Assembly (NCBI RefSeq): GCF_000250635.1
Contig: NC_016940.1
Location: 2,156,001 to 2,220,000, forward strand
Source: Saprospira grandis str. Lewin
Lineage (GTDB): Bacteria > Bacteroidota > Bacteroidia > Chitinophagales > Saprospiraceae
DNA length: 64,000 nt
Direction: 5' to 3'
Shown piece by piece: positions 6,781 through 63,264 of this stretch (the first letter of the stretch is position 1; every line of letters starts with the position of its first letter). The notes beneath the pieces were generated by a model. It had not been told where the DNA came from and ran no database searches. It saw nothing but the letters and a program-made list of their open reading frames with translations. A program made the position numbers and the translations under genes.

Positions 6781-6990
6781 GGGGCCTCCGCTACGGCCTC
6801 CGGCCTTGCGGCGCTACGCTTCAGGGCTCGCAGGTCTGCTCGGCCCTGCGGGCATCACTTCGTTCTGCCCTTGGTCTGCGGCTTCGCCGCCCCCTTTCGC
6901 ATCGCTAGGCCGATCCTGTAGGTTGAAACCTACAGCAAGAATGATATTGCTTCGCAATGATTTATAAATGAGGGTTGAAACCCTCATGAA
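6781..6990 (+). repeat. Interspersed modular repeat, copy 1, with hairpin tail
   Basis: The core runs 6781-6911 from GGGGCCTCC through GGGCTCGCAGGTCTGCTCGG to CATCGCTAGGCC. The second variable hairpin here is GCGGC-TTC-GCCGC. It is followed by two perfect short palindromes with a GTTGAAAC centre (6916-6935 and 6968-6987) and, between them, ATTGC-TTC-GCAAT. Fills most of the 330-base gap between susD and queG. Confidence 0.85.
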
Positions 6991-7027
6991 GTTAAATCGT
7001 CGCTTCGCTCCTCTAGGTCCAAAAAAA

Positions 7028-7957
7028 TTACGCTTCTTCCAAAAAGGCCAAGTTGCGCATTAAGCCCTTGTATTTGGTCCGCTTTACCGCCGATTTCTTA
7101 AATACTTTCCGAAAGACTTCTTCCGTCAATTCCATCCAATCTTCCCGCCGCATTTCTAATAGGTTTTCTTTGGGCCTAAAGGCCTCCTCCTGATGAGGCC
7201 GAGAAAATCGATTCCATGGACAAACATCCTGGCAAATGTCACAGCCAAACATCCAATCCGCAAATTGCCCTTTGTATTCCGCCGGCAACTCATCCCGCAA
7301 CTCAATCGTAAAATAGGAGATGCATTTGGAGCCATCCATGATATACCCTTTTTCAGAAATGGCTTGGGTGGGACAAGCATCTATGCAGCGCCGACAACGA
7401 CCACAGTAGTCTTTGATTGGCCCATCATAGACCAAGTCTACATCTATGATCAATTCGGCCAAAAAGAAAAATGACCCCCGCTGCTTACTGATTAATAAGG
7501 TGTTTTTACCAATCCAACCCAATCCCGAATGCTTGGCCCAGTCACGCTCCAATACTGGCGCAGAGTCTACAAAGGCCCGCCCATTAATGGGCCGACCCAA
7601 TTCAGTCTCCAATAGGGCCAGTAAATGACGCAGCTTGGCCTTTAAAACATAGTGGTAGTCTTCGCCATAGGCGTACTTGGCCAGTTTGGGCGCTCCTTCT
7701 ACTTGCTGCTCTTCCGGAAAATAATTAAAGCTTAAACTCACTACCGATTTGGCCCCATCTACCAACTTCCGAGGGTCTATCCGCTTCTCAAAGTGGTTTT
7801 CTAAGTATTGCATTTTCCCCTGATAGCCTTTATTTAACCAAGCTTCTAAACGACGGCCCTCTTCGGTCAGTTCTCGGGCCTGGGCAATGCGCAAATTATC
7901 AAAACCTTCTGCTAAGGCAGCCGCTCTAAGTTTGGCCGTAAGTTCGTATTTGTCCAT
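7028..7957 (-). CDS. queG: Epoxyqueuosine reductase QueG
   Basis: A 309-residue cobalamin- and [4Fe-4S]-dependent enzyme that reduces epoxyqueuosine to queuosine in tRNA, the last step of queuosine synthesis, in the cytoplasm. It shows the QueG catalytic region with the acid in FVDSAPVLERDWA and GLGWIGKNT, then two ferredoxin-like clusters: CGRCRRCIDACPT and CDICQDVCPWN. Length is normal for the short Bacteroidota form without the C-terminal HEAT extension. It lies upstream-to-downstream after the nitroreductase/ybeY group on the minus strand, separated from them by repeat copy 2. Start at the ATG giving MDKYELTAKLR. Confidence 0.95.
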   Translation of the reverse strand: MDKYELTAKLRAAALAEGFDNLRIAQARELTEEGRRLEAWLNKGYQGKMQYLENHFEKRIDPRKLVDGAKSVVSLSFNYFPEEQQVEGAPKLAKYAYGEDYHYVLKAKLRHLLALLETELGRPINGRAFVDSAPVLERDWAKHSGLGWIGKNTLLISKQRGSFFFLAELIIDVDLVYDGPIKDYCGRCRRCIDACPTQAISEKGYIMDGSKCISYFTIELRDELPAEYKGQFADWMFGCDICQDVCPWNRFSRPHQEEAFRPKENLLEMRREDWMELTEEVFRKVFKKSAVKRTKYKGLMRNLAFLEEA

Positions 7958-8011
7958 TAATTATATTTCTTCTAAGCGTCTATGATGAGGCCTTTGAGCC
8001 AAGAAAGTATC

Positions 8012-8203
8012 GGCTGAGGGATGGTAGTGGGTGGCCGAAGGCCAGACCAAGGAGCGCAGCGACGCAGGGCCGAGCAGACCTGCGAGCCCACGAACAGCCC
8101 GACCCGCCCGATAATTCATGAGGGTTTTAACCCTCATTTTGCATAAGTTCGCAAAGCGATACCGCTTTGCGCTGGGTTTCAACCCAGCGGAAGGGGCAGC
8201 CCC
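8012..8203 (-). repeat. Interspersed modular repeat, copy 2 (GGGGCTGCCCC type)
   Basis: On the minus strand it reads GGGGCTGCCCC, GTTGAAAC-type hairpins (GCTGGGTTTCAACCCAGC, GCAAAGCG..CGCTTTGC, TGAGGGTTTTAACCCTCA on the plus strand), GGGTCGGGCTG, the GCTCGCAGGTCTGCTCGG core, GGTCTGGCC-TTC-GGCCACC and CATCCCTCAGCC. It lies between the nitroreductase and queG. Confidence 0.85.
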
Positions 8204-11194: not shown

Positions 11195-11348
11195 GGGGCT
11201 TGCCGCCTTTGGCGGCCGTTCCCTTTCGGGGCTCGCAGGTCTGCTCGGCCCTGCAGCCCTGCGGGCTTTGGTCGGCGGCTGCGCCGCCCCCCTACAGGCA
11301 ACTAAGCCTGCGGCGGCTAAAGCCGCCTGTAGGACGCCCTATTGGTCC
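11195..11348 (+). repeat. Interspersed modular repeat, copy 3
   Basis: Starts GGGGCTTGCCGCC-TTT-GGCGG, then the conserved GGGCTCGCAGGTCTGCTCGG core and a further hairpin CTACAGGC...GCCTGTAG. The right-hand end differs from the consensus. It directly follows the porV-like stop codon. Confidence 0.75.
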
Positions 11349-11521
11349 AGAAAAGCGAGCGCAGCGAGCTTGGCTTAGGGATGGATAGTGGTGGCCGTAG
11401 GCCAGACCCAGGGCTTTGAAGCCTAGCGAAAAGCCCGCAGGGCCGAGCGAATAGCGAGCCACGACACAGCCCGACCCGCCCGATAACTCATGAGGGTGTT
11501 AACCCTCATTTTGTATAAGTT

Positions 11522-18533: not shown

Positions 18534-20091
18534 CTTGGGTTGACCCACTTTTAAAAATAAGCTTAACTTAGCTCTAAATCAAGATTTATATGGACAGTAC
18601 AAAGGTATCTTCATTTATGCTAAATAAGCAATCAGTGAGAGTATGTTATAGATTAGCAGAGAGTCTAAAAAATAATCCTAACCCACATTTAACAAATGTA
18701 GCAAAAACTGATGCAGACCGTAAGGCTTTCATGAGGTTGTTATCAAACAAAAATCTTACTGAGGAATACATTCAATTTGAGTTTATTGGCAAAAGTAGGG
18801 AGTCTATGAAGGTGGTTGAAGAAAAGCTTCTGGCCTTTCACGACACCTCTGAAGTTGTACTGAATAAGCAAAGAAATAGACTAACGGACAAAGAGGGTTT
18901 AGGCCCTGGAGGTCGGGAAACAAATTTGTCTGTATTTCTTCACATGGCTCTACTATATGGTCGAGAAAGCTTTCATTATCATGGCTTAGGAGGTGTTCAG
19001 CTTTATAATCGATATAAAAATAGAGTAACTTGTAAGGAGGCTGAAAATAGAAATACGGGTCATTTTAGAGGTGAAATTACGAGATGGAAAGTAAATGTAG
19101 AAGAGACAGAATCTGCGTTAAAAGTAATTAACGACCTAATTGATATTTTACATGTTTGTGATCGAGAAGGAGATGTTTATCCCATGATGGAAAGTTTTTT
19201 CAGACAGCATATTAAGTTCTTGATTCGGTCTCGAACAGATAGACGAGCAACGATTTGGGAGGATGGCAAAAAGATTCCATTATGTGATGTCTTTGAACAT
19301 TATCCAGCAGACTTTGAGACGACAGAAACGGTCAAGAGTAGCCGTAAAAAACTTAACGGGAAGAAGCTAGTTGTTCGATCTAAAAAAGTGACTTTTGCCG
19401 TTCCCAAATCTTGTAAGTATGTTCTTGGCGAACCAAGGCCTAAACCAATGACAATCAATGTTATTGAGGTCTTTGAAAAGGGCAAAGGTTTTTCAAAATC
19501 TGCCGCTAGAAAAAGAAGCCGAACAAAAAAAGATCATGATGATGAAACCATCAGTTGGCGCTTACTCACAAATGAAGAAATCAACAGCGAAGAAGAGCTC
19601 TTAGAGCTTGTTCTTTGCTACCGCAAGAGGTGGTTAATTGAAACATACTTTAAATATTTAAAATCAGATGGCTTTGATATTGAAAACATATGTTTAAAAA
19701 CAGGTAAAGCTATCCGCAAAATGATACTTATGGCAATCAGTGCATCTGACAAGGTCCTTAAGCTTAAAGAAGCTGGACTTAACCAAGATAATGAGACTCC
19801 AGCAACCTCTATTTTCACAGAAGATGAAGTAGAAGTCTTAGATCTTATATTTAAACAATATCTAAAAGGCGAAAGCCAAAGCCCTTCTTTGCGTAACCCA
19901 TTTACCTCTAAATCAATAGCTTGGGCCTATTGGATCATAGCAAGGTTGGGCGGATTTAATGGCGCAGTGAAGAAAACTAGGCATGCCGTATCCGTCAAGA
20001 AAATAGGACTAGGGTTAGAGAGATTCATATTTATGTATGATGGATATCGATCCCTAAATTGACACCGCTATAAAAAGTGGGTCAACCCAAG
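18534..20091 (+). mobile_element. IS4-family insertion sequence
   Basis: A 1558-bp element with near-perfect terminal inverted repeats CTTGGGTTGACCCACTTTT at both ends and a 9-bp target duplication, a size usual for the IS4 family. It holds one full transposase gene on the plus strand. It landed inside copy 5 of the interspersed repeat just after the PorU-like gene. Confidence 0.92.
18590..20062 (+). CDS. IS4-family transposase
   Basis: A complete 490-residue DDE transposase. The N-terminal region is of the Tn5/IS50-like plan (ESLKNNPNPHLTNVAKTDADRKAFMRLL; AFHDTSEVVL with the first Asp). The middle has DILHVCDREGDVYPMMESF with the second Asp. The C1 signature Y-(2)-R-(3)-E-(6)-K of IS4 elements is exact in YRKRWLIETYFKYLK. 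No stop or frameshift was found. Codon choice and lower GC differ from the GC-rich repeat around it, consistent with recent arrival. Confidence 0.93.
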   Translation: MDSTKVSSFMLNKQSVRVCYRLAESLKNNPNPHLTNVAKTDADRKAFMRLLSNKNLTEEYIQFEFIGKSRESMKVVEEKLLAFHDTSEVVLNKQRNRLTDKEGLGPGGRETNLSVFLHMALLYGRESFHYHGLGGVQLYNRYKNRVTCKEAENRNTGHFRGEITRWKVNVEETESALKVINDLIDILHVCDREGDVYPMMESFFRQHIKFLIRSRTDRRATIWEDGKKIPLCDVFEHYPADFETTETVKSSRKKLNGKKLVVRSKKVTFAVPKSCKYVLGEPRPKPMTINVIEVFEKGKGFSKSAARKRSRTKKDHDDETISWRLLTNEEINSEEELLELVLCYRKRWLIETYFKYLKSDGFDIENICLKTGKAIRKMILMAISASDKVLKLKEAGLNQDNETPATSIFTEDEVEVLDLIFKQYLKGESQSPSLRNPFTSKSIAWAYWIIARLGGFNGAVKKTRHAVSVKKIGLGLERFIFMYDGYRSLN

Positions 20092-20100
20092 GCTGCGCCG
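20092..20100. repeat. 9-bp target-site duplication, right copy (GCTGCGCCG)
   Basis: Matches 18525-18533 exactly and marks the right edge of the IS4-family element. Confidence 0.82.
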
Positions 20101-20187
20101 CTCGCAGGTCTGCTCGGCCCTGCGTCGCTTCGCTCCTGGGTCTGGCCCTGCGGGCCACGGCTGCGCAGCGCTGGGCCGCTCAGCGGT

Positions 20188-21121: not shown

Positions 21122-21361
21122 GAAGGGCGAAGCCCTTGGCCTAGCGATGTGCAGCAGTGGCCCGCAGGGCCAGACCAAAGCGCGAAGCGCTGCAGGGCCG
21201 AGCGAAGAGCGAGCTGCGAAACGTAGCGCCGACGACCGAAGGGAGGCGGAGGCCCCAAAAAAACAGCAGCGAGCTGCGACAACAAGGACTTTAGTCCGCA
21301 GTTCGACGACCGAAGGGAGTAAACGTAGCGCCGACGACCGAAGGGAGGCGGAGGCCCCAAA
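21122..21361 (-). repeat. Interspersed modular repeat, copy 6 (with TCGTCGA submodule)
   Basis: On the plus strand it reads GGCCTAGCGATGTG, GGCCCGCAGGGCCAGACC, GCAGGGCCGAGCGAAGAGCG, GTAGCGCC and GGAGGCCCC. A second GGAGGCCCC end and an inserted piece GACAACAAGGACTTTAGTCC / TTCGACGACCGAAGGGAGTA follow, so part of the unit is duplicated. Confidence 0.82.
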
Positions 21362-21414: not shown

Positions 21415-21446
21415 TTGTGAAAAGCGCTAAGGATCAGCTACTTTTG
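21415..21446 (+). promoter_or_regulatory. Promoter of the first RsbR-type block
   Basis: TTG at 21415-21417 and TACTTTTG at 21439-21446 are separated by 21 bases, close to the Bacteroidota -33 TTTG / -7 TAnnTTTG consensus. It lies 30 bases ahead of the ATG at 21476 and rules against the earlier GTG at 21446. Confidence 0.65.
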
Positions 21447-21475
21447 TGGGCATTTTAGGGGATCAAAAAAACAAT

Positions 21476-22345
21476 ATGCAAGAAAGAGTTGTTTGGACCA
21501 AAGATGCAGACTACTACAAAGAGCAATATTTAATTTCGGCAGAAGAACTGGCGGTATTGCGGGCGGCTGGCGAGCAAATTTCGGCAGAGCGGCGGCTGGT
21601 ATACGATGCCCTTTATGACTGGATGCGGAAATCGGAGCGCTATGCGGCATGCTTTAATGAGGAGTTGATTAGAGCTATTTCTTTGGATGAAGAGGTTTTT
21701 TGGGATGATGTGGTATTGGGGCGTTTGACCGATACCTATGTGAATACACAGCGGAATTATGGGGAACATTTTTCGATGGCGGGCTTGAGTTTAGAGTCTT
21801 TCATTGGCATATTGACCTGTTTTCATGAGCATATTCGTTTTGCTTTTATGCGCAATGGTTTGGCGACTTTTGAGCTAATGACGGCCTTTAAGAAATTTGC
21901 TCAGGTGGCGGTAGACATTGTGACGGAGGTCTATAATCATAAAATGGCCTGCACCTTACAGGAGCAGAATGACAGCTTGCGAGAATTATCGACCCCTGTA
22001 GCTCAGATTTGGGAAGGCGTTCTTCTATTGCCTTTGGTGGGGTTTATAGATTCTAAGCGGGCCCAAGACATTATGCAAAGGATGTTGGCTGAAGTAGGAG
22101 AAACTCAGTCGAAATTTTTTATCTTGGATATCAGTGGGGTAGCGATAGTAGACACTGCTGTAGCCAATCACTTAATCAAGATGAGCAAGGCGGCCAAACT
22201 GATGGGATGTAATTGTATTATCTCTGGAATATCGGGGCCTATTGCGCAAACCATTGTAGAGCTAGGGATAGACATTGATGAAATACGGACGACAAGCAGT
22301 ATGCGAGATGCCTTGCGCCTAGCAATTCAAGAGCAGAAAGAATAA
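21476..22345 (+). CDS. RsbR-type stressosome protein 1 (globin-like sensor + STAS)
   Basis: A 289-residue protein. The ATG at 21476 is used because the upstream GTG lies in the promoter. Residues ~15-155 form an all-helical RsbR-like globin-fold sensor; at the place of the haem-ligating His of the IGxxHxxxGL pattern there is Phe (YGEHFSMAGL), so haem is not expected. A linker (LQEQNDSLRELSTPV) leads to a STAS domain. Ser193 (FIDSKRAQ) and Thr227 (GVAIVDTAVAN) fall at the positions of the two phosphorylated Thr of B. subtilis RsbR (T171, T205). It should build a stressosome with RsbS/RsbT-like partners, none of which are nearby. First gene of a block of three, 4 bases before the next. Confidence 0.88.
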   Translation: MQERVVWTKDADYYKEQYLISAEELAVLRAAGEQISAERRLVYDALYDWMRKSERYAACFNEELIRAISLDEEVFWDDVVLGRLTDTYVNTQRNYGEHFSMAGLSLESFIGILTCFHEHIRFAFMRNGLATFELMTAFKKFAQVAVDIVTEVYNHKMACTLQEQNDSLRELSTPVAQIWEGVLLLPLVGFIDSKRAQDIMQRMLAEVGETQSKFFILDISGVAIVDTAVANHLIKMSKAAKLMGCNCIISGISGPIAQTIVELGIDIDEIRTTSSMRDALRLAIQEQKE

Positions 22346-22349
22346 ATAT

Positions 22350-23204
22350 ATGGCCATAGTAAAAATTAACAAACAGCGGTATTGGAGCATCTTTATGCTA
22401 GAGGAAGAGGATCTATTGCTTGTTCGGCGGGCGGGAGAAGCGATTATGTCTCGGCAAGAAGCTGTTTTTGAGGAATTTTATGCTTGGTTGGAGTTTCAGC
22501 CAGAGTATAGCGCAGACTATACCGAAGAAATTATTGAGCGCTTTGATCAGCAGTCGGCAATATTCTGGAAGCATATTTTATCGGCTCAGGTCGATGAGGA
22601 GTCGGTCCATTATCGGGAGCGTCTGGTGCAGGACCTGCTTAAATTGGGTTTGCCTTTTGAGGCTTATTTGTCGGCTACTTTTGCCTTTCATGAGCTGATT
22701 GAAAAAGCCTTTGTGCAAGAGGGGGTGGCTAGCTTTGAGCTAATGCAAGCCTTTAAGAAAGTGAGTAGTGTGGGGGTCTTTATTGCCATAGACACCTTTA
22801 ATAATGAGATGAACAAACAGCTGCAAGAGCAAAATGATATGCTGATGCAGCTCTCTACTCCAGTGACCCCAATTTGGGAGCAAATTTTACTTTTGCCCGT
22901 GGTGGGGATTGTCGATTCTTTTCGGGCGCAGAACATTATGACCGCCGTCCTGCAGGAGATTGCCGACTATCAGGCCAAGGTCTTTATTTTAGACATTTCT
23001 GGAGTGGGCGTAGTGGATACTGCCGTTGCCAACTACTTTATCAAAGTGAGCAAAGCGGCGAATTTGATGGGCTGTGAATGTATTATTTCGGGGGTAACGC
23101 CAGCCGTGGCCCAAACCCTAGTGGAGTTAGGGATAGATATAGAAAACATACAGACCAATGTAAATATTAAGGAGGCCCTTAAGACGGCAATTGGACAAAT
23201 ATAA
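22350..23204 (+). CDS. RsbR-type stressosome protein 2
   Basis: A 284-residue paralogue of the gene before it, starting 4 bases after its stop. The sensor half (about 1-155) is helical with FAFHELIEKAF, where His114 is the conserved FHE histidine shared by five of the six paralogues, and a GLPFEAY turn. The STAS half follows LSTPVTPIWEQILLLPVVG; the phospho-acceptor positions are Ser190 (IVDSFRAQN) and Thr224 (GVVDTAVANYF). The linker LQEQNDMLMQLSTPVTPIW is closest to protein 3, so proteins 2 and 3 are a subpair. It acts in the cytoplasm; its signal is unknown. Confidence 0.88.
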   Translation: MAIVKINKQRYWSIFMLEEEDLLLVRRAGEAIMSRQEAVFEEFYAWLEFQPEYSADYTEEIIERFDQQSAIFWKHILSAQVDEESVHYRERLVQDLLKLGLPFEAYLSATFAFHELIEKAFVQEGVASFELMQAFKKVSSVGVFIAIDTFNNEMNKQLQEQNDMLMQLSTPVTPIWEQILLLPVVGIVDSFRAQNIMTAVLQEIADYQAKVFILDISGVGVVDTAVANYFIKVSKAANLMGCECIISGVTPAVAQTLVELGIDIENIQTNVNIKEALKTAIGQI

Positions 23205-23222
23205 TTTTTTTCACTATCTTGT
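23191..23222 (+). promoter_or_regulatory. Possible promoter of RsbR-type gene 3
   Basis: TTG at 23191-23193, 21 bases, then TATCTTGT (23215-23222), a weak match to TAnnTTTG, 33 bases before the ATG at 23256. It overlaps the end of gene 2. Confidence 0.4.
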
Positions 23223-23255
23223 TTGCCCATAAATTTCCCGAAAATTGTTTGATAT

Positions 23256-24146
23256 ATGAAGAAAGGCGAAATTTCCTATAGCCGCTATGCTCCTATGTAT
23301 ATGTTTACGGAAGAGCGCTTGGAGCTAATTCGTCAGGCCGGGCGGGAAATTGCAGAAGCAAAGGAAGAAATCTTTGAGCTTTTTTATGACTCCTTGCGCC
23401 TACACCCTACCTTTTCTGAGCAGTATAACGAAATTGTTATTGAGCGATTTGCTCAGGACCAAGAGGGCTTATGGCAGCACATTTTAGAGGCCAAGATGGA
23501 TGATGAGTTTGTGCGTTATCGCAGTCAGTTGGTTCGTGACTTACTACAGATAGGTTTGGCTTTTGAGGCTTGCTTTACGGCCATTTTTGCTTTGCATGAG
23601 TTTATTGAATTGAAGTTCATGGAGTACAATTTGGCTAGCCTAGATTTGCTCCAAACCTTTAAGCGAATTTGTAGCCTAGGAGCATTAATTGCCATTGACA
23701 CCTTCAACCAAGAAATCAATCAGCAGCTAGCAGATCAAAATGAGATGTTGATGCAGCTGTCTACTCCCGTAACGCCAATCTGGGAAGATATTTTGCTCTT
23801 GCCCATTGTGGGGATCGTGGATTCTATTCGGGCCCAAACCATCATGTCGGCGGTGCTTCAAGAAATTGCCGAGCGGCAGGCCAAGGTCTTTATTCTTGAT
23901 ATTTCTGGAGTGGCCATTGTAGACACAGCCGTGGCCAATTACTTTATTCGGGTGAGCAAGGCGGCCTGGCTAATGGGCTGCAAAACGATTCTATCGGGTA
24001 TTTCGCCAGCCATTGCCCAAACATTGGTAGAGCTAGGCGTAGATACGGGCCGCCTGAGCACCAGAAGCAATATGCAGGATGCTCTAGAACGGGCCTTTAG
24101 TTGGACGGGCCGGGCGGTTCTGGAAAAAAGAAAGCAAAAAGGCTAG
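23256..24146 (+). CDS. RsbR-type stressosome protein 3
   Basis: A 296-residue paralogue, closest to protein 2. It has a helical sensor half with His114 in FALHEFIELKF and Leu at the usual haem-His place (VRDLLQIGL), then LSTPVTPIWEDILLLPIVG and a STAS domain with Ser190 (IVDSIRAQT) and Thr224 (AIVDTAVANYF) at the RsbR phosphorylation positions. The C-terminus carries an extra basic tail (RAVLEKRKQKG) not found in the others. The 51-base gap before it may hold its own promoter. Its output half is well kept, its sensor half is more varied, as expected when paralogues read different signals. Confidence 0.88.
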   Translation: MKKGEISYSRYAPMYMFTEERLELIRQAGREIAEAKEEIFELFYDSLRLHPTFSEQYNEIVIERFAQDQEGLWQHILEAKMDDEFVRYRSQLVRDLLQIGLAFEACFTAIFALHEFIELKFMEYNLASLDLLQTFKRICSLGALIAIDTFNQEINQQLADQNEMLMQLSTPVTPIWEDILLLPIVGIVDSIRAQTIMSAVLQEIAERQAKVFILDISGVAIVDTAVANYFIRVSKAAWLMGCKTILSGISPAIAQTLVELGVDTGRLSTRSNMQDALERAFSWTGRAVLEKRKQKG

Positions 24147-24205
24147 GGCTTTAATTCTTTTTAAGTAATTTAAACTATCCCCTCAAACTACTTAATTGGA
24201 ATATT

Positions 24206-24793
24206 ATGGCAGAATTTAAAGCTTTTACAGAGCATATCGAAGTGAATGCGACCACCGTACTCTCTTTTATTTATTCTATGAAAAGAGGGCAAGACAAACG
24301 TTTGGCCTTACTAGAAAAGCATGGGATCAAGCCCGAAGAAGGCGGCTGGTACCCACAGCAAAAATGGCTAGATGCTTTTGAGGAGCTCAGCCAAACGGTG
24401 GGCGATATGAATCTCCTCTTAATCGGAATGGCCATTATCGAAAATGCCAACTTCCCCCCCTTCAACTCGCTAAAAGAAGGCCTAGAGGTTATTGATGTGG
24501 CTTATCATATGAACCACAGAGACCAAAACGGTCAGCCGCTTTTTAATCCAGAGACTGGCCAAAAAACGGAGGGTATTGGCTGCTATGATTTGCAATACTA
24601 TAACGAAGAAGAGCAAACAGCTATCATGTATTGCCGCAATCCCTACCCCAGTAAATTTGATCAAGGCATTATCACGGCCCTTTGTCGTCGTGTTCGCCCC
24701 GACAGCATCAAAACAATTGATGTCCGTCCAGATTTGGATAAGGAAAGAAGACCTAAAGGGGGCGATTCTTGCACCTTTATTATCAACTGGTGA
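24206..24793 (+). CDS. Uncharacterised protein next to the RsbR-type genes
   Basis: A 195-residue soluble protein. I recognise a conserved family pattern but no proven function: an N-terminal IEVNATTVLSFIYSM and EKHGIKPEEGGWYPQQKWLDAF, a middle AIIENANFPP and DVAYHMNHR, and a C-terminal YCRNPYPSKFDQGIITAL plus KGGDSCTFIINW. The Cys-containing end resembles the ends of V4R/H-NOX-associated small-ligand domains, so a sensor role is possible; that is inference. It follows RsbR-type gene 3 by 59 bases on the same strand and may belong to that block. Confidence 0.65.
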   Translation: MAEFKAFTEHIEVNATTVLSFIYSMKRGQDKRLALLEKHGIKPEEGGWYPQQKWLDAFEELSQTVGDMNLLLIGMAIIENANFPPFNSLKEGLEVIDVAYHMNHRDQNGQPLFNPETGQKTEGIGCYDLQYYNEEEQTAIMYCRNPYPSKFDQGIITALCRRVRPDSIKTIDVRPDLDKERRPKGGDSCTFIINW

Positions 24794-24800
24794 TTAATTT

Positions 24801-24921
24801 GGGGCTGCCCCGCCCTGCGGGCGGGTCGGGCTGTCTCGCAGCTCGCTGTTCGCTCGGCCCTGCAGCGGCAAAGCCGCTTTGGTCTGCCGCCTTCGGCGGC
24901 CCTGCTGCCCATCCCTCAGCC
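24801..24921 (+). repeat. Interspersed modular repeat, copy 7 (GGGGCTGCCCC type)
   Basis: GGGGCTGCCCCGCC-CTGC-GGGCGG, GTCGGGCTG, CAGCTCGCTGTTCGCTCGGC, GGTCTGCCGCC-TTC-GGCGGCC and CATCCCTCAGCC. It directly follows the stop of 24206-24793. Confidence 0.84.
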
Positions 24922-25077
24922 AGATTTAATTGCACTGCTTTGGCCATAGTTTGCTATGAATTTTTGGCTAGGCTAGCTATTTTTTAAGAGCATAGCCTTC
25001 GCTATGGTCGAGAAAAATAGGGACGACTAGCAGGAAATTGCTGCAAACTATAAAAGTGAGTGCGTTTAAATCTGGCT
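24918..25077. repeat. Long imperfect inverted repeat (160-base hairpin)
   Basis: The left arm (24918-24954, AGCCAGATTTAATTGCACT... to ...ATAGTTTGC) pairs with the right arm (25043-25077, GCAAACTATAAAAGTGAGTG... to ...AATCTGGCT) with few mismatches. Inner arms GCTATTTTTT / AAAAATAG extend the pairing. It begins in the last bases of repeat copy 7. It may be a MITE-like insertion or a structured RNA; no coding frame is supported. Confidence 0.6.
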
Positions 25078-25132
25078 ATTGCCGAGGCGCTGCGCGCCTT
25101 TGCGGGCGACTTGGCCGCCCTGCCTAACGCAA

Positions 25133-26131: not shown

Positions 26132-26135
26132 CGCT

Positions 26136-26432
26136 TTAGGTATACATTAAGATAAGTACGCAAATTGTCGCAATAGTCGTCAATACTGTCGACATGCGAA
26201 CCGTGAATCGAATCCCCCCGCAAAATTGCCGAATCGCCTTTTCTTGCTCCGGATACTTAGGAATAATTTCCTCCTCTAGCTTTTTTACACTAAAAATATG
26301 ACTAGCCCCAAACTCTACCCGGTTTTTAACCAATACCCCATAGGCCTTCACAACCTTAACCCTCGAGTAAATCACCAAGGTCAAAATGGCAAAAAAGCAA
26401 ATGATCGTAATACTGATGAGTATATTCTCCAT
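26136..26432 (-). CDS. Small two-helix membrane protein, unknown function
   Basis: About 98 residues from the ATG at 26432 (MENILISITI). The upstream ATG at 26459 is less likely because a -7-like element overlaps it. There is an N-terminal membrane helix (ILISITIICFFAILTLVIY) and a C-terminal one (MSTVLTTIATICVLILMY) around a basic cytoplasmic or periplasmic loop with KLEEEIIPKYPEQEKAIRQF. No family was recognised. It precedes murB with a 4-base gap, hinting at an envelope role, but nothing more can be said. Confidence 0.65.
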   Translation of the reverse strand: MENILISITIICFFAILTLVIYSRVKVVKAYGVLVKNRVEFGASHIFSVKKLEEEIIPKYPEQEKAIRQFCGGIRFTVRMSTVLTTIATICVLILMYT

Positions 26433-26456
26433 TTTGTAATTCTCTGTTTTAAGGGC

Positions 26457-26464
26457 CAAATATA
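26457..26464 (-). promoter_or_regulatory. -7 element ahead of the small membrane protein / murB pair
   Basis: On the minus strand TATATTTG matches TAnnTTTG, 24 bases before the ATG at 26432. No TTG was found at the usual -33 distance. Confidence 0.4.
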
Positions 26465-29611: not shown

Positions 29612-29877
29612 GGGGCCTCCCGCCTTCGGCGGGCGCTACGTTTCAGGGCTCGCAGGCTTGCTCGGCCCTTCAGCCGCCAAAGGCGGCTTCGGTCTGGCCT
29701 TCGGCCACCCTTTCACATCGCTAGGCCACTCAACAGACTTCTTTGCGCCTATTGTTTTTCTTCGGCCGCATTGCTGCACATCGGTTACTCCCTTTGGTCG
29801 TCGAAGACGCCCTGAAGGGCTTGTTGTGGCCGCTGAATAAAGGTTTTTGCGCCCATTGTTTTTCTTCGGCCCCAAAA
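29612..29877 (+). repeat. Interspersed modular repeat, copy 8
   Basis: GGGGCCTCCCGCC-TTC-GGCGG, GCTACG, GGGCTCGCAGGCTTGCTCGG, GGTCTGGCC-TTC-GGCCACC and CATCGCTAGGCC (to 29727). The tail to 29877 has the TTACTCCCTTTGGTCGTCGA submodule and two direct copies of GCGCCYATTGTTTTTCTTCG. Confidence 0.84.
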
Positions 29878-29930: not shown

Positions 29931-30081
29931 GGCGGCAAAGCCGCGCAGCGCGATTAAATCTGGCTGAGGGATGGAAAGTGGTGCGGCAAAGCCGCAGACC
30001 CAGGCGCTGAAAGCGCCGCAGGGCCGAGCAGACCTGCGAGCCACGATACAGCCCGACCCGCCCGCAGGGCGGGGCAGCCCC
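29931..30081 (-). repeat. Interspersed modular repeat, copy 9 (GGGGCTGCCCC type)
   Basis: On the plus strand: GGCGGC-AAA-GCCGC, GATTAAATCTGGCTGAGGG, GCGGCAAAGCCGCAGACCC, GGGCCGAGCAGACCTGCGAG, CAGCCCGACCCGCC and GGGGCAGCCCC. It faces copy 8 and lies upstream of the tape-measure gene. Confidence 0.84.
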
Positions 30082-35368: not shown

Positions 35369-35545
35369 GGGGGCTTCCCGCAGCCCTTTTATTTGGGGCT
35401 GCGGGCGCTATGCTGCGGGGCTCGCAGGTCTGCTCGGCCCTTCATTTTTTTCGCTGCGCTCAAAAAACTCGGTCTGGCCTGACGGCCACCCGCTCCGCAG
35501 CGCTAAGCCATTTTGGCCCAAGGGCCAAGGCGGCTTCGCCGCCCC
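35369..35545 (+). repeat. Interspersed modular repeat, copy 10
   Basis: Begins 5 bases after the tape-measure stop: GGGGCTTCCCGCAGCCC hairpin, GCTATGCTGCGGGGCTCGCA core, GGTCTGGCC-TGAC-GGCCACC and CGCAGCGCTAAGCC, then GGCGGC-TTC-GCCGCC. Confidence 0.8.
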
Positions 35546-35605: not shown

Positions 35606-35830
35606 GGCCTAGCGATGTGGAGCAGTGGCCCAGAGGGCCAGACCAAGGCGGCTTTGCCGCCGCAGGGCCGAGCGAGTAGCGAGCTGCGCAACGTAGCGCC
35701 GACGAGCGAAGCGAGGCGGAGGCCCCAAAATAGCAGCGAGCTGCGGAACGACAACAAGAACTTTAGTTCGCAGTTCGACGACCGAAGGGAGTAACCGCCG
35801 CAAGGCGAAGCCGCAGCGGAGGCCCCAAAA
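35606..35830 (-). repeat. Interspersed modular repeat, copy 11 (with TCGTCGA submodule)
   Basis: Plus-strand reading: GGCCTAGCGATGTGG, GGCCCAGAGGGCCAGACC, GGCGGC-TTT-GCCGCC, GGGCCGAGCGAGTAGCGAGC, GTAGCGCC, GGAGGCCCC, then AACTTTAGTTCGCAG, TTCGACGACCGAAGGGAGTA and a second GGAGGCCCC. It faces copy 10. Confidence 0.84.
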
Positions 35831-40586: not shown

Positions 40587-40700
40587 GGGGGCCTCCTGCC
40601 TGCGGCAGGCGCTACGTTTCGCAGCTCGCAAGTCTGCTCGGCCCTGCGGCCTGACGGCCTTGGTCTGCGGCTGCGCCGCACTGCTCCACATCGCTAGGCC
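40587..40700 (+). repeat. Interspersed modular repeat, copy 12
   Basis: GGGGGCCTCCTGCC-TGC-GGCAGGCG, CTACG, CAGCTCGCAAGTCTGCTCGG, GGTCTGCGGC-TGC-GCCGCA and CACATCGCTAGGCC. It lies right upstream of mutY. Confidence 0.84.
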
Positions 40701-41150: not shown

Positions 41151-41289
41151 GCGGCGAAGCCGCCGGCTGAGGGATGGATAAGGGTGGCCCGAAGGGCCAG
41201 ACCAAGGGCGAAATAAAATGAGCCCGCAGGGCCGAGCAGCCCTGCGAGCCCTGACACAGCCCGACCCGGCCAAAGGCCGGGGCAGCCCC
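41151..41289 (-). repeat. Interspersed modular repeat, copy 13 (GGGGCTGCCCC type)
   Basis: Plus-strand reading: GCGGC-GAA-GCCGC, GGCTGAGGGATGG, GGCC-CGAA-GGGCCAGACC, GGGCCGAGCAGCCCTGCGAG, CAGCCCGACCCGGCC-AAA-GGCCGGGGCAGCCCC. It follows the tandem array and precedes the end of the next minus-strand gene. Confidence 0.84.
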
Positions 41290-45797: not shown

Positions 45798-45968
45798 GGG
45801 GCTGCCCCTTCCTTCGGTCGGGTCGGGCTGTTTCGCAGCTCGCTATTCGCTCGGCCCTGCGCAAAATTCGCTTCGCTCATTTTGCTGGGTCTGGCGCTTC
45901 GCGCCACTGCTGTCCATCCCTCAGCCGACGGCCCTGCGGGCCTTTTCAGGCGGCTTCGCCGCCTTTTT
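45798..45968 (+). repeat. Interspersed modular repeat, copy 14 (GGGGCTGCCCC type)
   Basis: GGGGCTGCCCCTTCCTTCGG, GTCGGGCTG, CAGCTCGCTATTCGCTCGGC, GGTCTGGCGC-TTC-GCGCCAC (a covarying hairpin), CATCCCTCAGCC, then GGCGGC-TTC-GCCGCC. It lies between the DUF4266 and DUF3570 genes. Confidence 0.84.
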
Positions 45969-47158: not shown

Positions 47159-47183
47159 AAGCAGAGTGATTTTTGCGTCTAGA

Positions 47184-47410
47184 AGCGGGCAAAGCCCGCT
47201 GGCCTAGCGATGTGAAGCAGTGGCCGTCAGGCCAGACCCAGGCGGCAAAGCCGCCGCAGGGCCGAGCGAAGAGCGAGCTGCGCAACGTAGCGCCTGCCGA
47301 AGGCAGGAGGCCCCAAAACAGCAGCGAGCTGCGGAACGACAACAAGGTCTTTAGTCCGTCTTCGACGACTGAAAGGAGTAACCGCCTGCCGAAGGCAGGA
47401 GGCCCCAAAA
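47184..47410 (-). repeat. Interspersed modular repeat, copy 15 (with TCGTCGA submodule)
   Basis: Plus-strand reading: GCGGGC-AAA-GCCCGC, GGCCTAGCGATGTG, GGCCGTCAGGCCAGACC, GGGCCGAGCGAAGAGCGAGC, GTAGCGCCTGCCGAAGGCAGG AGGCCCC, then the AACAAGGTCTTTAGTCCG piece and a second AGGCCCC end. It lies between the thioredoxin-like and apbE genes. Confidence 0.84.
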
Positions 47411-52393: not shown

Positions 52394-52439
52394 CATGGCT
52401 TTTTTACTATTTTGCTAAATCTGAAAAGACTATTGTTTT

Positions 52440-52671
52440 GGGGCCTCCCGTAATTGTTGCGGGCGCTTACTCCCTTCGGTCGTCGAACGGCGGCCTAAAG
52501 GCCTTGTTGTCGTTCGGCAGTTCGCTATCAAGGGGCCTCCCGCCTTCGGCGGGCGCTACGTTCGGCAGCTCGCTGTTCGCTCGGCCCTGCGGCGGCTTTG
52601 CCGCCTGGGTCTGGCCTTCGGCCACTGCCTTCCATCGCTAGGCCGTTGCTGGCTTCGCCAGCTTAGGGCCG
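52440..52671 (+). repeat. Interspersed modular repeat, copy 16 (with TCGTCGA submodule)
   Basis: GGGGCCTCCCGTAATTGTTGCGGG, TTACTCCCTTCGGTCGTCGA, GGCC-TAAA-GGCC, TTGTTGTCGTTCGGCAG, a second GGGGCCTCCCGCC-TTC-GGCGG, GCTACG, CAGCTCGCTGTTCGCTCGGC, GGTCTGGCC-TTC-GGCCAC, CATCGCTAGGCC and GCTGGC-TTC-GCCAGC. It lies upstream of gltX. Confidence 0.84.
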
Positions 52672-52870
52672 TTCCTTTTGCTTTTCGGGGGCAAAGATAG
52701 GCTTTTTCAAAAACTTCTCTCTCTTCCTCAAACTTTTATCTCCCTATGCTTCAAGATTCTTCCAATTTTTTTGTTTGGCCTATTTTAAATAGTGGTCACA
52801 AATAAGCTGAGTAGCCCTTTCGTTCAGCCTTAAAAAAGTTTGTTATGATCTCTTTGATATTTCTGCTAAG

Positions 52871-53983: not shown

Positions 53984-54193
53984 AGGCGGCGAAGCCGCCG
54001 CAAGGCGCGCAGCGCCTCGGCTGAGGGATGGACAGCAGTGGCCGCAGGCCAGACCCAGTTTTTTTGAGCGCAGCGAAAAAAAACGCAGGGCCGAGCAGAC
54101 CTGCGAGCTGCGACAACCAGCCCCTATAGGGGCGCCAGTTCGACGACCAACGGGAGTACACAGCCCGACCCGCCTGAAGGGCGGGGCAGCCCC
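53984..54193 (-). repeat. Interspersed modular repeat, copy 17 (GGGGCTGCCCC type, mosaic)
   Basis: Plus-strand reading: GGCGGC-GAA-GCCGCC, GGCTGAGGGATGG, GGCCGCAGGCCAGACCC, GGGCCGAGCAGACCTGCGAG, CAACCAGCCCCTATAGGGGC, AGTTCGACGACCAACGGGAG, CAGCCCGACCCGCC and GGGGCAGCCCC. It carries the TCGTCGA submodule inside the other end type. Confidence 0.84.
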
Positions 54194-57644: not shown

Positions 57645-57780
57645 TAGGGGCGCGAAGCGCCTTGGCCTAGCGATGTGGAGCAGTGGCCCATAGGGCCAGA
57701 CCGAGCCGCTGAAAGCGGCGAAGGGCCGAGCGAACAGCGAGCTGCGAAACGTAGCGCCCGCCGAAGGCGGGAGGCCCCAA
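57645..57780 (-). repeat. Interspersed modular repeat, copy 18
   Basis: Plus-strand reading: GGCGC-GAA-GCGCC, GGCCTAGCGATGTGG, GGCCCATAGGGCCAGACC, GGGCCGAGCGAACAGCGAGC, GTAGCGCCCGCC-GAA-GGCGGGAGGCCCC. Fills the gap between radC and the rhomboid pair. Confidence 0.85.
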
Positions 57781-60497: not shown

Positions 60498-60762
60498 GGG
60501 GCCTCCGACGAGCGTAGCGAGGCGGCGGTTACTCCCTTCGGTCGTCGAAGACGAACTAAAGTTCTTGTTGTCGTTTATTCCCTTTGGTCATCGAACTGGC
60601 GCCCCTATAGGGGCTGGTTGTCACAGCTCGCTGTTATTTTGGGGCCTCCGCTGCGGCTTCGCCTTGCGGCGCTACGTTGCAGGGCTCGCAGGTCTGCTCG
60701 GCCCTGCGGCGGCTTTGCCGCCTTGGTCTGGCCTGACGGCCACCCTTCCACATCGCTAGGCC
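60498..60762 (+). repeat. Interspersed modular repeat, copy 19 (with TCGTCGA submodule)
   Basis: GGGGCCTCCGACGAGCG, TTACTCCCTTCGGTCGTCGA, AACTAAAGTTCTTGTTGTCG, ATTCCCTTTGGTCATCGAAC, GCCCCTATAGGGGC, a second GGGGCCTCCGC, GGGCTCGCAGGTCTGCTCGG, GGTCTGGCC-TGAC-GGCCACC and CATCGCTAGGCC. Two TCGTCGA-type pieces stand in tandem. Confidence 0.84.
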
Positions 60763-60860
60763 AAATGGACCGCCCTGCGCTTGGCGCCCTCTGCCACCCC
60801 CAAAATAAGACCTCCCCCTAGATTATATTCTGTATCTTAGATCCGCTAATCGCTTCCCTT

Positions 60861-63122
60861 ATGCGCCTATGGATTTTTCTGCTTTTTTGGGCCAATCTAC
60901 TCTCCGCCCAAGTTCCGCCTTCGGCTTATTATGCCAAAGAGCTGCCCATTCATTTGACCGATAGCCAAAGTCTTCAACTTTTTTCTCCGCCCCAATTTCT
61001 CCAAGGACCATTAGATAGCCTGCTCCAAAGGCCCCAATTTGCCATCTGGCAAACTGGCGATAGCCTGAGCTATCGCAGCTATTTGGTCCAAGAGGCCCCC
61101 AGCCAATTAATTACGGTCAGCCTTTTTGTCCAACCCAAACTCCTCTGGGATGACAATAAAGGAATTTATAGCAAAGGCCCCCGCGCTTGGCCCATCTTCC
61201 CCTATAAGGGCGCCAATTTCTACCAAAAGAAAGAGGTCCCTGCTCAGTTGGCATTAATAGATAGTAGTGGCCTACTCTGGGAAGGTCCCGTTGGCCTCAG
61301 CATTTTTGGCGGCAGTAGCCGAGCCTATGAACAAAAGTCTCTAGCCATTTATGCCCGCTCTTCTTATGGGGCCAAATGGATCCGCTACCCCATTTTTCCA
61401 GATTTACCTTATAAGAAGTATAAACGCCTGGTCCTCCGAAATTCGGGCAGTGGCTTTAAAGGCAGCCACCTCCGAGATGCTTTTATTGGCCAATTGGGCC
61501 GTGAATTGGGCCTGGGCGTTCAAGCCTACCGCCCCGCTAGGGTCTACATTAATGGCCAATATTGGGGCATCCTCAATATCCGAGAGAAATTGACGGCCCG
61601 CTATCTCGAACAGCATTATGGGGTAGATAAAGATAGTCTGGACCTGATGGAGTATAGTGTGAATGTTAATGCAGGTAGCTCCGCTCACTATTTGCGCCTG
61701 CGCAAGTATATGCAGCAACATAATTTGGCCGATAGCCAACATTATGCGCAAGTTGGCCGCTGGATGGATATCCAAAATTTTATGGATTATCAAATTATGC
61801 AAATCTATGTCGATAATCAGGACGCTGGCGGAAATATTAAGTTTTGGCGACCAAAAACAGCCAATGGCCGCTGGCAATGGCTGCTCTATGATACCGATTA
61901 TGGCTTTGGCTTTTATAGTAAAGGCGGCTACGATTTTAATAGCCTGAAGTTTCATACGGAAGCCAATGGCCCCCGCTGGCCCAATCCGCCCTGGTCCACG
62001 TTTTTGCTCCGCCAATTGCTCAAAAATCAAGATTTTCGCCAAGCGTTTTTAGAACGTTTTTGCGACCGAATTAATGGCCACTTTCAAGCAGAACGGCTCT
62101 GCAACCGCCTAGATAGTATGGGCCAAGTTCTCCGTCCCGAACTTTGGCGCCACCAATTGCGCTGGCAATTGCACCACAGCCTCTGGACCAACCGCATGCA
62201 GGAGATGGCCGAGTTTGCCCACAAACGCCCAGCCTATATGGCCCAATTCTTAGCCGAGTTTTTTCCAGAGTTTGGTCCCCAACAAAGCCTTGTTCTGCAA
62301 ACCCAAGGAGATGGCTTTGTCCGTGTCAATGATCTATATAATACAGAAGGCCTAGCCCAGGGCCTCTATTTTCAGGGACTAGGGCTGCGCCTAAAGGCGC
62401 AGCCCTATCTGGACCAAAGGTTCTCGCATTGGATCATCAATGGCCAACGCTATGAGGGCCAAAGTCTAGCATTGCCTCCCCAAGCTAGAGATAGCCTTTA
62501 TATTACCGCCGTTTTTGAGCTGGCCCCAAAACGAGACCTGATCATTAATGAGTTTAGCTGCCGAGATACTCTTGCGGGCGATTGGATTGAGTTTTTTAAT
62601 GCCAGCGCCCAAGCACTGCAGCTAGAAAAATATGCCCTAGAAGATGAAAAAGGCCATCGCTACCAATTTGCAGCGGGCCAATTGCCCGCTGGGGCCTATT
62701 TGGTCCTTTGTCGAGATAGCCTAGGCTTCAAAAAGCGCTTTCCAGATTTCTCGGGCCAGCTTTGGAGCGGCCTTAATTTTGGCCTAGGCGCCAAAAGCGA
62801 TCAGCTTCTGCTCTATGCCCAAAATGAGTTGGTAGATAGCCTAAGCTACAAGCTGGGAAAGTCAAAAGATTCTTTATTTTTGTCCTTGGCCCTAAGGCAT
62901 CCCTATCTGCAAAGAAGCAACTTTGCCCTCAACTGGAAAAAGGAGCGCAATGCAGGTAGCCCCGGCCAAGAAAATCCCATATACAGCAAAAAACGAAAAG
63001 AACGCAGCTTGTCCAAAAACTGGAAAGCCGCAAATTTTGCCCCCTATCTATGGGGATTAGCCCTTTTTCTGGCCCTGCTCTTGGCGGCCTATGGTTTGGG
63101 CCAATATCGAGGCAGGGAATAA
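60861..63122 (+). CDS. CotH-kinase-family protein with lamin-tail domain and C-terminal membrane helix
   Basis: A 753-residue exported protein. The signal peptide is LWIFLLFWANLLSAQ. The CotH kinase domain spans ~130-470: RLVLRNSGSGFKGSHLRDAF, VYINGQYWGILNIREKLTA, FMDYQIMQIYVDNQDAGGNI and WQWLLYDTDYGFG, whose Asp pair is catalytic in CotH. A lamin-tail domain follows (~555-680, LIINEFSCRDTLAGDWIEFF). A last hydrophobic helix (LWGLALFLALLLAAYGLG) then RGRE anchors it, instead of a sorting domain. CotH proteins phosphorylate Ser/Thr of partner proteins; the target here is unknown. A TATCTTAG element precedes the start. Confidence 0.9.
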   Translation: MRLWIFLLFWANLLSAQVPPSAYYAKELPIHLTDSQSLQLFSPPQFLQGPLDSLLQRPQFAIWQTGDSLSYRSYLVQEAPSQLITVSLFVQPKLLWDDNKGIYSKGPRAWPIFPYKGANFYQKKEVPAQLALIDSSGLLWEGPVGLSIFGGSSRAYEQKSLAIYARSSYGAKWIRYPIFPDLPYKKYKRLVLRNSGSGFKGSHLRDAFIGQLGRELGLGVQAYRPARVYINGQYWGILNIREKLTARYLEQHYGVDKDSLDLMEYSVNVNAGSSAHYLRLRKYMQQHNLADSQHYAQVGRWMDIQNFMDYQIMQIYVDNQDAGGNIKFWRPKTANGRWQWLLYDTDYGFGFYSKGGYDFNSLKFHTEANGPRWPNPPWSTFLLRQLLKNQDFRQAFLERFCDRINGHFQAERLCNRLDSMGQVLRPELWRHQLRWQLHHSLWTNRMQEMAEFAHKRPAYMAQFLAEFFPEFGPQQSLVLQTQGDGFVRVNDLYNTEGLAQGLYFQGLGLRLKAQPYLDQRFSHWIINGQRYEGQSLALPPQARDSLYITAVFELAPKRDLIINEFSCRDTLAGDWIEFFNASAQALQLEKYALEDEKGHRYQFAAGQLPAGAYLVLCRDSLGFKKRFPDFSGQLWSGLNFGLGAKSDQLLLYAQNELVDSLSYKLGKSKDSLFLSLALRHPYLQRSNFALNWKKERNAGSPGQENPIYSKKRKERSLSKNWKAANFAPYLWGLALFLALLLAAYGLGQYRGRE

Positions 63123-63123
63123 G

Positions 63124-63264
63124 GCCAAGCCTCCTTGGCCTAGCGATGTGGAGGGGTGGCCGAAGGCCAGACCAAGCTTTTTTGAGCAAAGCGAAAAAAA
63201 GCGAAGGGCCGAGCAGACCTGCGAGCCCCGCAGCGTAGCGCCGCAGCTTTGCTGCGGAGGCCCC
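63124..63264 (-). repeat. Interspersed modular repeat, copy 20
   Basis: Plus-strand reading: GGCCAAGCCTCCTTGGCC, TAGCGATGTGG, GGCC-GAA-GGCCAGACC, GGGCCGAGCAGACCTGCGAG, GTAGCGCCGCAGCTTTGCTGCGGAGGCCCC. Lies between the CotH gene and gldA. Confidence 0.85.

What the first reader, a model, noticed from the sequence alone, without database searches (positions are those of the whole stretch)
6781..63264. A dense, modular interspersed repeat family, about 20 copies in 64 kb
Seen: copies 1-20 (listed as features) share a core around GCTCGCAGGTCTGCTCGG, a GGTCTGGCC..GGCCAC hairpin, and one of two end pairs (GGGGCCTCC...CATCGCTAGGCC or GGGGCTGCCCC...CATCCCTCAGCC). They are always between genes, in both orientations, often right after a stop codon, and make almost every long gap GC-rich while real leaders are AT-rich. 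Inference: this is a lineage-specific REP/BIME-like or RNA element, perhaps moved by an external transposase, acting in mRNA 3' ends or chromosome structure.
Basis: partly seen in the sequence, partly recalled or inferred. Interest (0 to 1): 0.8.

Follow-up and report, generated by a model that had tools for sequence, protein, structure and literature searches.

The report
Alternating folded DNA repeats between genes
About three quarters of the longer spaces between genes in this bacterium hold a branched, self-pairing DNA element, some 1,300 per genome; neighbouring copies usually point in opposite directions, and the stems inside a copy are swapped while it keeps its place and its pairing.

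Summary
The repeat family is real and far larger than reported. The window holds 20 copies (17 with the GGGGC 5' end); the genome has 1,290 exact-pattern copies (control 0), two congeners 1,287 and 1,275. One other genus has hundreds of candidates, another dozens of matches.

Each copy is a 111-155-nt multi-branched fold: closing stems P1, P3, P4 plus hairpins HP1, P5, HP2, HP3. Stems change on both sides together: P1 pairs in 121 of 121 parsed copies, in four sequence states. Most covarying stems almost lack G.U, and loops and energies favour the complementary strand, so I read a DNA-level fold; a conserved G.T in P6 and G.U in HP2 of another genus speak against it.

No strict copy lies inside a called gene (0 of 140). 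Orientation ignores gene direction but alternates along the chromosome: 110 of 119 neighbours, 25 of 29 in another genus. Two strict copies in one gap are convergent (19 of 19). Sites are inherited (54 of 55, 54 of 57), yet interior stems are replaced in matched form.

Y1 transposase genes read here lie among other palindromes. Best reading: a BIME/REPIN-like DNA-fold element in inverted pairs, homogenised by ectopic exchange. The cause of alternation is unknown.

The parts
6781..6911 (+). copy 1, P1 type CT/AG
8012..8120 (-). copy 2, 3' type CA; 5' end replaced by a TGAGGGTT..AACCCTCA palindrome (outer limit approximate)
11195..11308 (+). copy 3, P1 type TT/AA
11372..11492 (-). copy 4, 3' type AA, 5' end replaced (outer limit approximate)
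20078..20177 (+). copy 5, 3' type GG, 5' end degenerate (outer limit approximate)
21138..21256 (-). copy 6, type CT/AG
24801..24921 (+). copy 7, type TG/CA
29612..29727 (+). copy 8, type CT/AG; differently arranged variants with the M module at the orthologous site in G001 and G002
29962..30081 (-). copy 9, type TG/CA
35370..35509 (+). copy 10, type TT/AA with a long HP1
35606..35726 (-). copy 11, type CT/AG
40588..40700 (+). copy 12, type CT/AG
41165..41289 (-). copy 13, type TG/CA
45798..45926 (+). copy 14, type TG/CA
47201..47314 (-). copy 15, type CT/AG
52532..52644 (+). copy 16, type CT/AG
54019..54193 (-). copy 17, type TG/CA, with an M-like module inserted inside
57664..57778 (-). copy 18, type CT/AG; absent from the orthologous site in G001 and G002; breaks the alternation
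60641..60762 (+). copy 19, type CT/AG
63137..63264 (-). copy 20, type CT/AG
21277..21310 (-). accessory module M (GTCGTCGAA-hairpin-CTTGTTGTCG), upstream of copy 6
35749..35782 (-). accessory module M, upstream of copy 11
47337..47369 (-). accessory module M, upstream of copy 15
   Evidence: longer arm 47335-47386 (I13)
52479..52512 (+). accessory module M, upstream of copy 16
60541..60573 (+). accessory module M, upstream of copy 19
   Evidence: longer arm 60524-60575 (I13)

Best explanation
This is a BIME/REPIN-like interspersed element that works as DNA. One strand (tentatively the reverse complement of the orientation used here), or an extruded cruciform of both, folds into a multi-branched structure: closing stems P1, P3 and P4 around hairpin HP1 and a junction of P5, HP2 and HP3. 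Shown: copy number, fold by covariation, extragenic location, alternating orientation with convergent doubles, inheritance of site and orientation, and replacement of interior stems mostly in matched form. Inferred: copies were spread, mostly as inverted pairs, by a trans-acting factor that recognises the folded strand. Old copies are now kept alike by ectopic gene conversion, or by annealing of single strands from other copies, which carries the P4-P5-HP2-HP3 domain as a block and leaves site and orientation unchanged. The factor is unknown. Why single ordinary genes often lie between the two members of a pair is not explained.
For: Copy number 1,290, 1,287 and 1,275 with controls of 0. Fold: 95.0% of cells paired against 79.3% in shuffles, covariation score 0.395 against 0.134 shuffled and at most 0.134 when slid (this structure was adjusted, my first one gave 89.4% and 0.371). 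RNAalifold chose P1, P3 and P4 unaided. The fold recurs in G017: 90.1% against 82.2%, 0.199 against 0.068. In A1 no pair of P1, HP1, P3, P4 or P5 has a one-sided standard-pair change. Distinct HP2 and HP3 hairpins have 1 G.T to 1,418 Watson-Crick pairs. Read on the complementary strand, C-G-closed loops in copies of this genome are GNA 269, TNC 2, of 475; outside elements the top strand has GNA 12, TNC 21 (stem cut-off 4 against 5). The complementary strand is more stable in 112 of 120 copies with DNA parameters. Alternation: 110 of 119, 156 of 194 in a contiguous 713 kb with shuffle maximum 123 in 20,000, 50/56, 56/60 and 53/58 in three syntenic regions, 25 of 29 in another genus. Strict doubles in one gap: 19 of 19 convergent. 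Sites kept: 54 of 55 in G001, 54 of 57 in G002. Interior exchange, G000 against G001 (93% identical): HP2 differs in 30 of 45, P4 5' triplet in 14 of 45, its 3' partner changed in all 14 and both states fully Watson-Crick in 13. Against G002: 22 of 44, partner unchanged in 2, fully Watson-Crick in 16.
Against: P6 keeps a G.T on the plus strand in 55 of 56 copies and 48 of 49 in G017; that is A.C on the strand I favour. In G017 the outer HP2 pair is G.U in 15 of its 41 paired cells, and HP2 as aligned is only 58.8% paired. In A1 the HP2 and HP3 columns show 4 and 6 one-sided changes, some of them perhaps misregistered rows. HP1 shows 23 G.T against 3 A.C on the plus strand (not broken down). 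The measure 'further pair types' does not exceed shuffles in A1 (34 against 35.9). The GNA loop bias is absent in G017 (4 TNC, no GNA, of 36). With RNA parameters the complementary strand is also more stable, in 84 of 120, so energy does not separate DNA from RNA. No clean empty site or target duplication; no transposase linked to it. Only 19 of 105 occupied gaps hold a pair. Exchange was inferred from sequence, not observed.
Confidence: 0.48

Rival explanations
1. A domesticated chromosome-structure or insulator element. Each polar fold binds a host protein, and oppositely oriented neighbours act together, for example as anchors of small loops or as a two-way barrier to supercoils or polymerases. 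Selection keeps sites and orientation while interior sequence is free to drift by exchange.
For: Site, orientation and copy number are kept across 86-93% identical genomes. 105 of 144 gaps of 200 bp or more are occupied regardless of gene direction. Alternation occurs in two genera and in the 56.6-kb contig of G001 (15 of 19, counted by hand from the list). The copy at 57.7 kb, which breaks alternation, is the one missing from both relatives.
Against: No bound protein and no phenotype known. Two MAGs placed in the same genus have no match. A functional site need not exchange its stems. Of the six same-orientation neighbour pairs in 184 kb of this genome only one is tied to a copy missing from both relatives.
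Confidence: 0.25
2. A structured RNA or mRNA-end element: transcribed copies fold and protect, terminate or process transcripts.
For: Strong base-pair covariation, a conserved G.U in P6 (55 of 56 and 48 of 49), and G.U in the outer HP2 pair of G017 (15 of 41 paired cells), which suit plus-strand RNA.
Against: Orientation is independent of gene direction. G.U is absent or nearly so in the other covarying stems of this genus. Alternation across genes has no RNA-level reason. No Rfam match.
Confidence: 0.15
3. A neutral relic: palindromic DNA kept perfect by mutational processes (template switching at hairpins, mismatch repair of hairpins), with alternation left over from duplication.
For: Near-perfect HP2 and HP3 stems almost without G.T, highly diverse HP2 (111 distinct of 166) and long perfect HP1 palindromes in some G017 copies.
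Against: P1, P3 and P4 pair over long distances and keep pairing across genera. Low-scoring copies are few: of 147 HMM matches 4 score under 30 bits and 7 under 45 (E up to 1e-3).
Confidence: 0.1

Closest known systems
BIME / REP elements (enterobacteria, Pseudomonas)
   Same: Extragenic, hundreds to more than a thousand copies, palindromic, mosaic, inverted and alternating arrangement (alternation within BIMEs: abstract start of PMC2817692 seen in the search listings).
   Different: REPs are 20-40 bp (abstract start of PMC3733652). This unit is 111-155 nt and multi-branched with long-range closing stems; alternation runs across genes for hundreds of kb; the Y1 transposase loci read here are among other palindromes.
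REPINs (REP doublets forming hairpins)
   Same: Inverted doublets as the unit, ssDNA hairpins, compensatory changes (passages of PMC3116915).
   Different: Each half is itself a branched fold, halves often differ in type, and the two halves often have one ordinary gene between them.
MITEs and enterobacterial RU/ERIC-like repeats
   Same: Non-coding, dispersed, of similar length (RU-1 127 bp, RU-2 168 bp: abstract start of PMC2759123).
   Different: No terminal inverted repeats bounding one unit; no target duplication or clean empty site at the one strain-specific copy examined.
Parvovirus-type branched terminal repeats (recalled only)
   Same: Branched palindromic fold at inverted positions.
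   Different: No replicating unit seen; most of the enclosed genes scanned belong to ordinary families (8 of 10).

Membership tests
REP/BIME | Extragenic, high copy number | tested here: met
   1,290 copies; 0 of 140 strict copies inside called genes
REP/BIME | 20-40 nt single palindrome | tested here: not met
   Length 111-155 nt in 121 parsed copies, branched
REP/BIME | GTAG or CGTC tag at one end | not tested
   Tags named in the title and abstract start of PMC3733652; not looked for systematically
REP/BIME | Cognate RAYT (Y1_Tnp) gene flanked by the repeat | tested here: not met
   Y1_Tnp in 6 of 6 genomes. Four loci read (L079, L080, L083, L085; L083 is the only one of the window's genome) carry other palindromes. 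The other matches were not read.
REPIN | Inverted doublets over-represented | tested here: met
   19 of 19 strict doubles in one gap convergent (20 of 23 in the loose set); alternation
REPIN | Doublet plus spacer folds into one hairpin | not tested
   Members of a pair often differ in 3' type (11 of 38 same); joint folding not computed
MITE | Target-site duplication and clean empty site | tested here: inconclusive
   One strain-specific copy (57.7 kb); flanks also replaced
Known structured RNA (Rfam 15) | Match to a covariance model | tested here: not met
   0 matches in the window at gathering score; 0 up to E=5 for one copy, window 52400-52700
Structured cis-acting RNA | Sense orientation to a host transcript | tested here: not met
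   26 sense, 18 antisense singles in same-strand gaps; bracketed genes in both orientations

The most novel reading that the evidence does not exclude
A bacterial genome partitioned by about 1,300 polar DNA-fold elements whose alternating orientation divides it into two classes of segment: short ones bounded by 3' ends (0-1 gene in 49 of 57) and longer ones bounded by 5' ends. The elements act in convergent pairs as boundary or loop anchors, and interior stems are continually exchanged without loss of the fold.
Probability: 0.2. Interest if true: 0.95.

Novelty: new variant of a known kind. Interest (0 to 1): 0.77.

Why it matters
Interspersed repeats are common, but here orientation is ordered over hundreds of kilobases independently of genes, and this recurs in a second genus. 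The element also shows compensated, multi-stem covariation, probably at the DNA level, and fast cassette-like exchange of stems at fixed, inherited sites. The genomes are a natural experiment with about 1,300 replicates per strain. What a branched DNA fold does in a bacterial chromosome, and what keeps REP-like repeats in place, become testable in a genus with sequenced strains.

Tried and rejected
Rejected: sense 3'-UTR element (no clear orientation bias). RAYT-driven REP. Mobile gene cassettes bounded by the pairs: of 29 enclosed single genes I scanned 10, and 8 hit Pfam families (QueG, ApbE, exo/endo-phosphatase, CotH, CinA, acyl-CoA dehydrogenase, Mur ligase, dicarboxylate symporter), 2 had no hit; the five bracketed genes of the window lie between the same copies in both relatives. 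Purging of direct neighbours by recombination: second neighbours are mostly in the same orientation, 126 of 193. Types paired within couples: 11 of 38 same 3' type against 34.6% expected. Avoidance of equal P4 in convergent couples: 10 of 72 (27% expected), but 8 of 27, 8 of 26, 3 of 21 and, in G017, 4 of 10; only couples under 1.2 kb show it in the genus (9 of 74, a subset chosen after seeing the data), so it is not claimed. Viral contigs: three pattern matches, not examined.

Counting limits: exact patterns miss copies, so alternation is probably a lower bound. The loose set has 158 hits, 113 of 137 neighbours alternating, 12 hits inside called genes, and in gaps of 200 bp or more 20 +-, 1 -+, 1 ++ and 1 -- doubles. 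HMM hits give 113 of 126. Of 173 loose core matches 137 pass the core filter and 121 parse at both ends; only these 121 enter the P1 count. In one search, 2 of 57 copies fell at an edge for G001. One search left 7 and 6 ortholog pairs unparsed and dropped the few sites without exactly one same-strand counterpart. The gene caller was my own simple script. Two searches scored at most 88 and 150 candidates per genome, so match counts are lower bounds. G017's 20 contigs were chosen because they carried high-scoring hits, several of them two or more. Alignment A2 was fitted to the model's structure; G013 rows in A1 are partly misregistered at P4.

Papers: searches listed no description of this repeat in the searchable library; the genome paper of strain Lewin was not in the listings and was not read. 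Read: passages of PMC3116915 and PMC6479982; otherwise listings with abstract starts only. One search was to source the stability of GNNA tetraloops in DNA and gave nothing used.

Full report
What is there. The window (64 kb, 46.6% GC) holds 20 copies of one element between 6781 and 63264. In the orientation used here a copy reads: T-run, GGGGC-xx (P1 5'), hairpin HP1, P3 5', three variable bases (P4 5'), the core GCTCGC..GCTCGGCCC (P5), hairpin HP2, GGTC, hairpin HP3, P4 3', P3 3', xx-GCC (P1 3'). Lengths of 121 parsed copies are 111-155 nt. The outer end is mostly sharp after a T-run; the inner side continues into a few shared hairpin modules and then fades. A second module, M, sits upstream of or inside some copies, with 114 exact-pattern matches genome-wide.

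How many and where. The exact pattern GCTCGGCCCTKC-N(10-40)-GGTC occurs 641+649 times in the 4.40-Mb genome, with a backwards-read control of 0. Congeners G001 and G002 have 1,287 and 1,275. G001 has a 4,422,561-bp contig, the length of the Saprospira grandis DSM 2844 scaffold named. The window's own genome has a 4,345,237-bp contig; I take it for another S. grandis strain (Lewin), from memory of its size. With covariance model R1, of 40 genomes only G000-G002, G013 and G017 have many matches; G009 and G011 have one each, and the two congeneric MAGs G003 and G004 have none. In one search G017 gave 148 matches among 150 scored of 675 first-look candidates, G013 56 among 150 scored of 329. At 1,290 copies of mean length about 123 nt the family occupies about 3.6% of the genome (arithmetic).

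The fold. In alignment A1 (52 copies from this genome and 4 from G013) the structure has 95.0% of cells paired, against 79.3% in shuffles, and a covariation score of 0.395 against 0.134; versions slid by 1-3 columns reach at most 0.134. 'Further pair types' does not exceed shuffles (34 against 35.9). My first version, before seeing RNAalifold, gave 89.4% and 0.371. RNAalifold on the same alignment chose P1, P3, P4, P5, P6 and most of HP3 by itself, not HP2. Of 173 loose core matches, 137 pass the core filter and 121 parse; P1 is paired in 121 of these 121: CT/AG 65, TG/CA 33, CC/GG 16, TT/AA 7. G013 copies use further states such as GCGTG/CACGC with P4 ACA/TGT, and P4 ATG/CAT or TGA/TCA (sequences). 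In G017 (alignment A2, 49 rows), P5 takes three states, paired in 49 of 49; P4 varies with 92.3% of cells paired (15 of 49 unpaired at one position); P1 and P3 do not vary; HP2 is 58.8% and HP3 79.9% paired as aligned.

DNA or RNA. Three observations favour DNA. First, no pair of P1, HP1, P3, P4 or P5 in A1 shows a one-sided standard-pair change, that is, G.U, and distinct HP2 and HP3 hairpins have 1 G.T to 1,418 Watson-Crick pairs (98 of 112 distinct HP2 gave a stem). RNA stems that change by compensation normally pass through G.U (general knowledge). Second, C-G-closed loops of copies in this genome, read on the complementary strand, are GNA in 269 and TNC in 2 of 475; G001+G002 give 174 and 2 of 309; hairpins outside elements give GNA 12 and TNC 21 on the top strand. 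GNA loops form very stable DNA minihairpins (passages of PMC6479982 citing Yoshizawa et al. 1997). Third, the complementary strand is more stable in 112 of 120 copies with DNA parameters. Against: P6 keeps a plus-strand G.T in 55 of 56 and 48 of 49 copies. HP1 has 23 G.T to 3 A.C. In G017 the outer HP2 pair is G.U in 15 of 41 paired cells, and the loop bias is not seen there. In A1 the HP2 and HP3 columns have 4 and 6 one-sided changes. RNA parameters give 84 of 120 the same way, and the lowest-energy fold contains P1 in only 82 (DNA) or 95 (RNA) of 120 on the complementary strand. I therefore claim a DNA-level fold as likely, not proven, and the strand only tentatively.

Order along the chromosome. 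Strict copies in 21 stretches (464 kb, 140 copies) alternate in orientation in 110 of 119 neighbouring pairs. A contiguous 713 kb gives 156 of 194, against a shuffle mean of 97.5 and maximum of 123 in 20,000, exact-pattern copies only. Three syntenic regions give 50 of 56, 56 of 60 and 53 of 58. G017 gives 25 of 29, reached by 3 of 20,000 shuffles. Convergent neighbours are closer (median 1,573 bp) than divergent ones (3,934 bp). Between convergent neighbours there are 0 genes (20), 1 gene (29) or more (8); between divergent neighbours always at least one (53 of 53). When a gap of 200 bp or more holds two strict copies they are convergent in 19 of 19. In G017 convergent neighbours are not tight (564-10,504 bp), so tight pairing alone does not make the alternation there. 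Gene direction plays no clear part: 105 of 144 such gaps are occupied (23 of 33, 28 of 37, 29 of 35, 25 of 39 for ++, --, convergent and divergent gene pairs), and singles in same-strand gaps are 26 sense to 18 antisense.

How it changes. Over 184 kb, 54 of 55 mappable copies have a counterpart in G001 (93.3% identity) at the same place and orientation, and 54 of 57 in G002 (86.0%). Interiors are replaced faster than flanks diverge. Between G000 and G001, HP2 differs in 30 of 45, the core loop in 25, HP3 in 24, the P4 5' triplet in 14; the 3' partner changed in all 14, and in 13 both genomes' P4 are fully Watson-Crick. Between G000 and G002, HP2 differs in 37 of 44, the P4 triplet in 22, with the partner unchanged in 2 and full pairing in both genomes in 16 of 22. 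Thirteen site comparisons failed to parse and are not counted. The P1 type is kept more often: by best HMM in 52 of 54 and 44 of 54; by letters it differs in 7 of 45 and 7 of 44. At the 29.6-kb site the three genomes carry three different arrangements. The only copy of the window absent from both relatives, at 57.7 kb, also breaks the alternation, and its surroundings differ as well, so it is no clean insertion.

What moves it. Y1_Tnp genes occur in all six genomes tested, with and without the element. Four of these loci were read and lie among other palindromes. The five bracketed genes of the window stay between the same copies in G001 and G002, and of ten bracketed proteins scanned (of 29) eight belong to known families, most of them ordinary metabolic ones. 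So neither a RAYT nor cargo transposition is supported. The simplest account is old spread by an unknown factor, mostly as inverted pairs, followed by ectopic exchange that keeps copies alike. A host function in chromosome structure would explain the kept sites and orientation and is the main rival.

Known or new. It works like a BIME/REPIN but fails two features tested here (unit size, linked RAYT), so it is not filed as a member. Searches of the open-access library listed nothing on it; subscription papers and preprints were not covered.

Noticed in passing
window 8090-8137, 11462-11520, 6911-7000; L079: Short GGGTT(G)AAACCC-type palindromes are scattered and in two window copies stand in place of the 5' half of the element. 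Palindromes of this kind cluster around one of the RAYT genes of G002 (L079), so they look like true REPs of these genomes.
   Followed up: partly
window 40769-41175: Tandem array with a 21-nt unit (13 registers reported) between copies 12 and 13.
   Followed up: no
window 21446-29349: Cluster of related genes (300-nt repeats at about 22.0, 22.8, 23.7, 27.1, 28.1 and 29.0 kb), next to one of the rare same-orientation neighbour pairs.
   Followed up: no
L038 11203 and 14915 (-): Two direct neighbours show identical HP2, HP3 and 24-nt 3' flank, so at least one exception to alternation looks like a recent duplication.
   Followed up: partly
G001:C1 (56.6-kb contig, probably a plasmid): 20 copies, alternating 15 of 19, at chromosome-like density (hand count from the list).
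   Followed up: partly
L259, L260, L261: Three viral contigs match the core pattern; not examined.
   Followed up: no
inner flanks of many copies, e.g. window 47160-47200: Shared downstream hairpin modules (TGCGGC..GCCTG, AAGTCGCTTCGCTCC.., GCTCAACGGTCTTTTTT..) occur behind different copies.
   Followed up: partly
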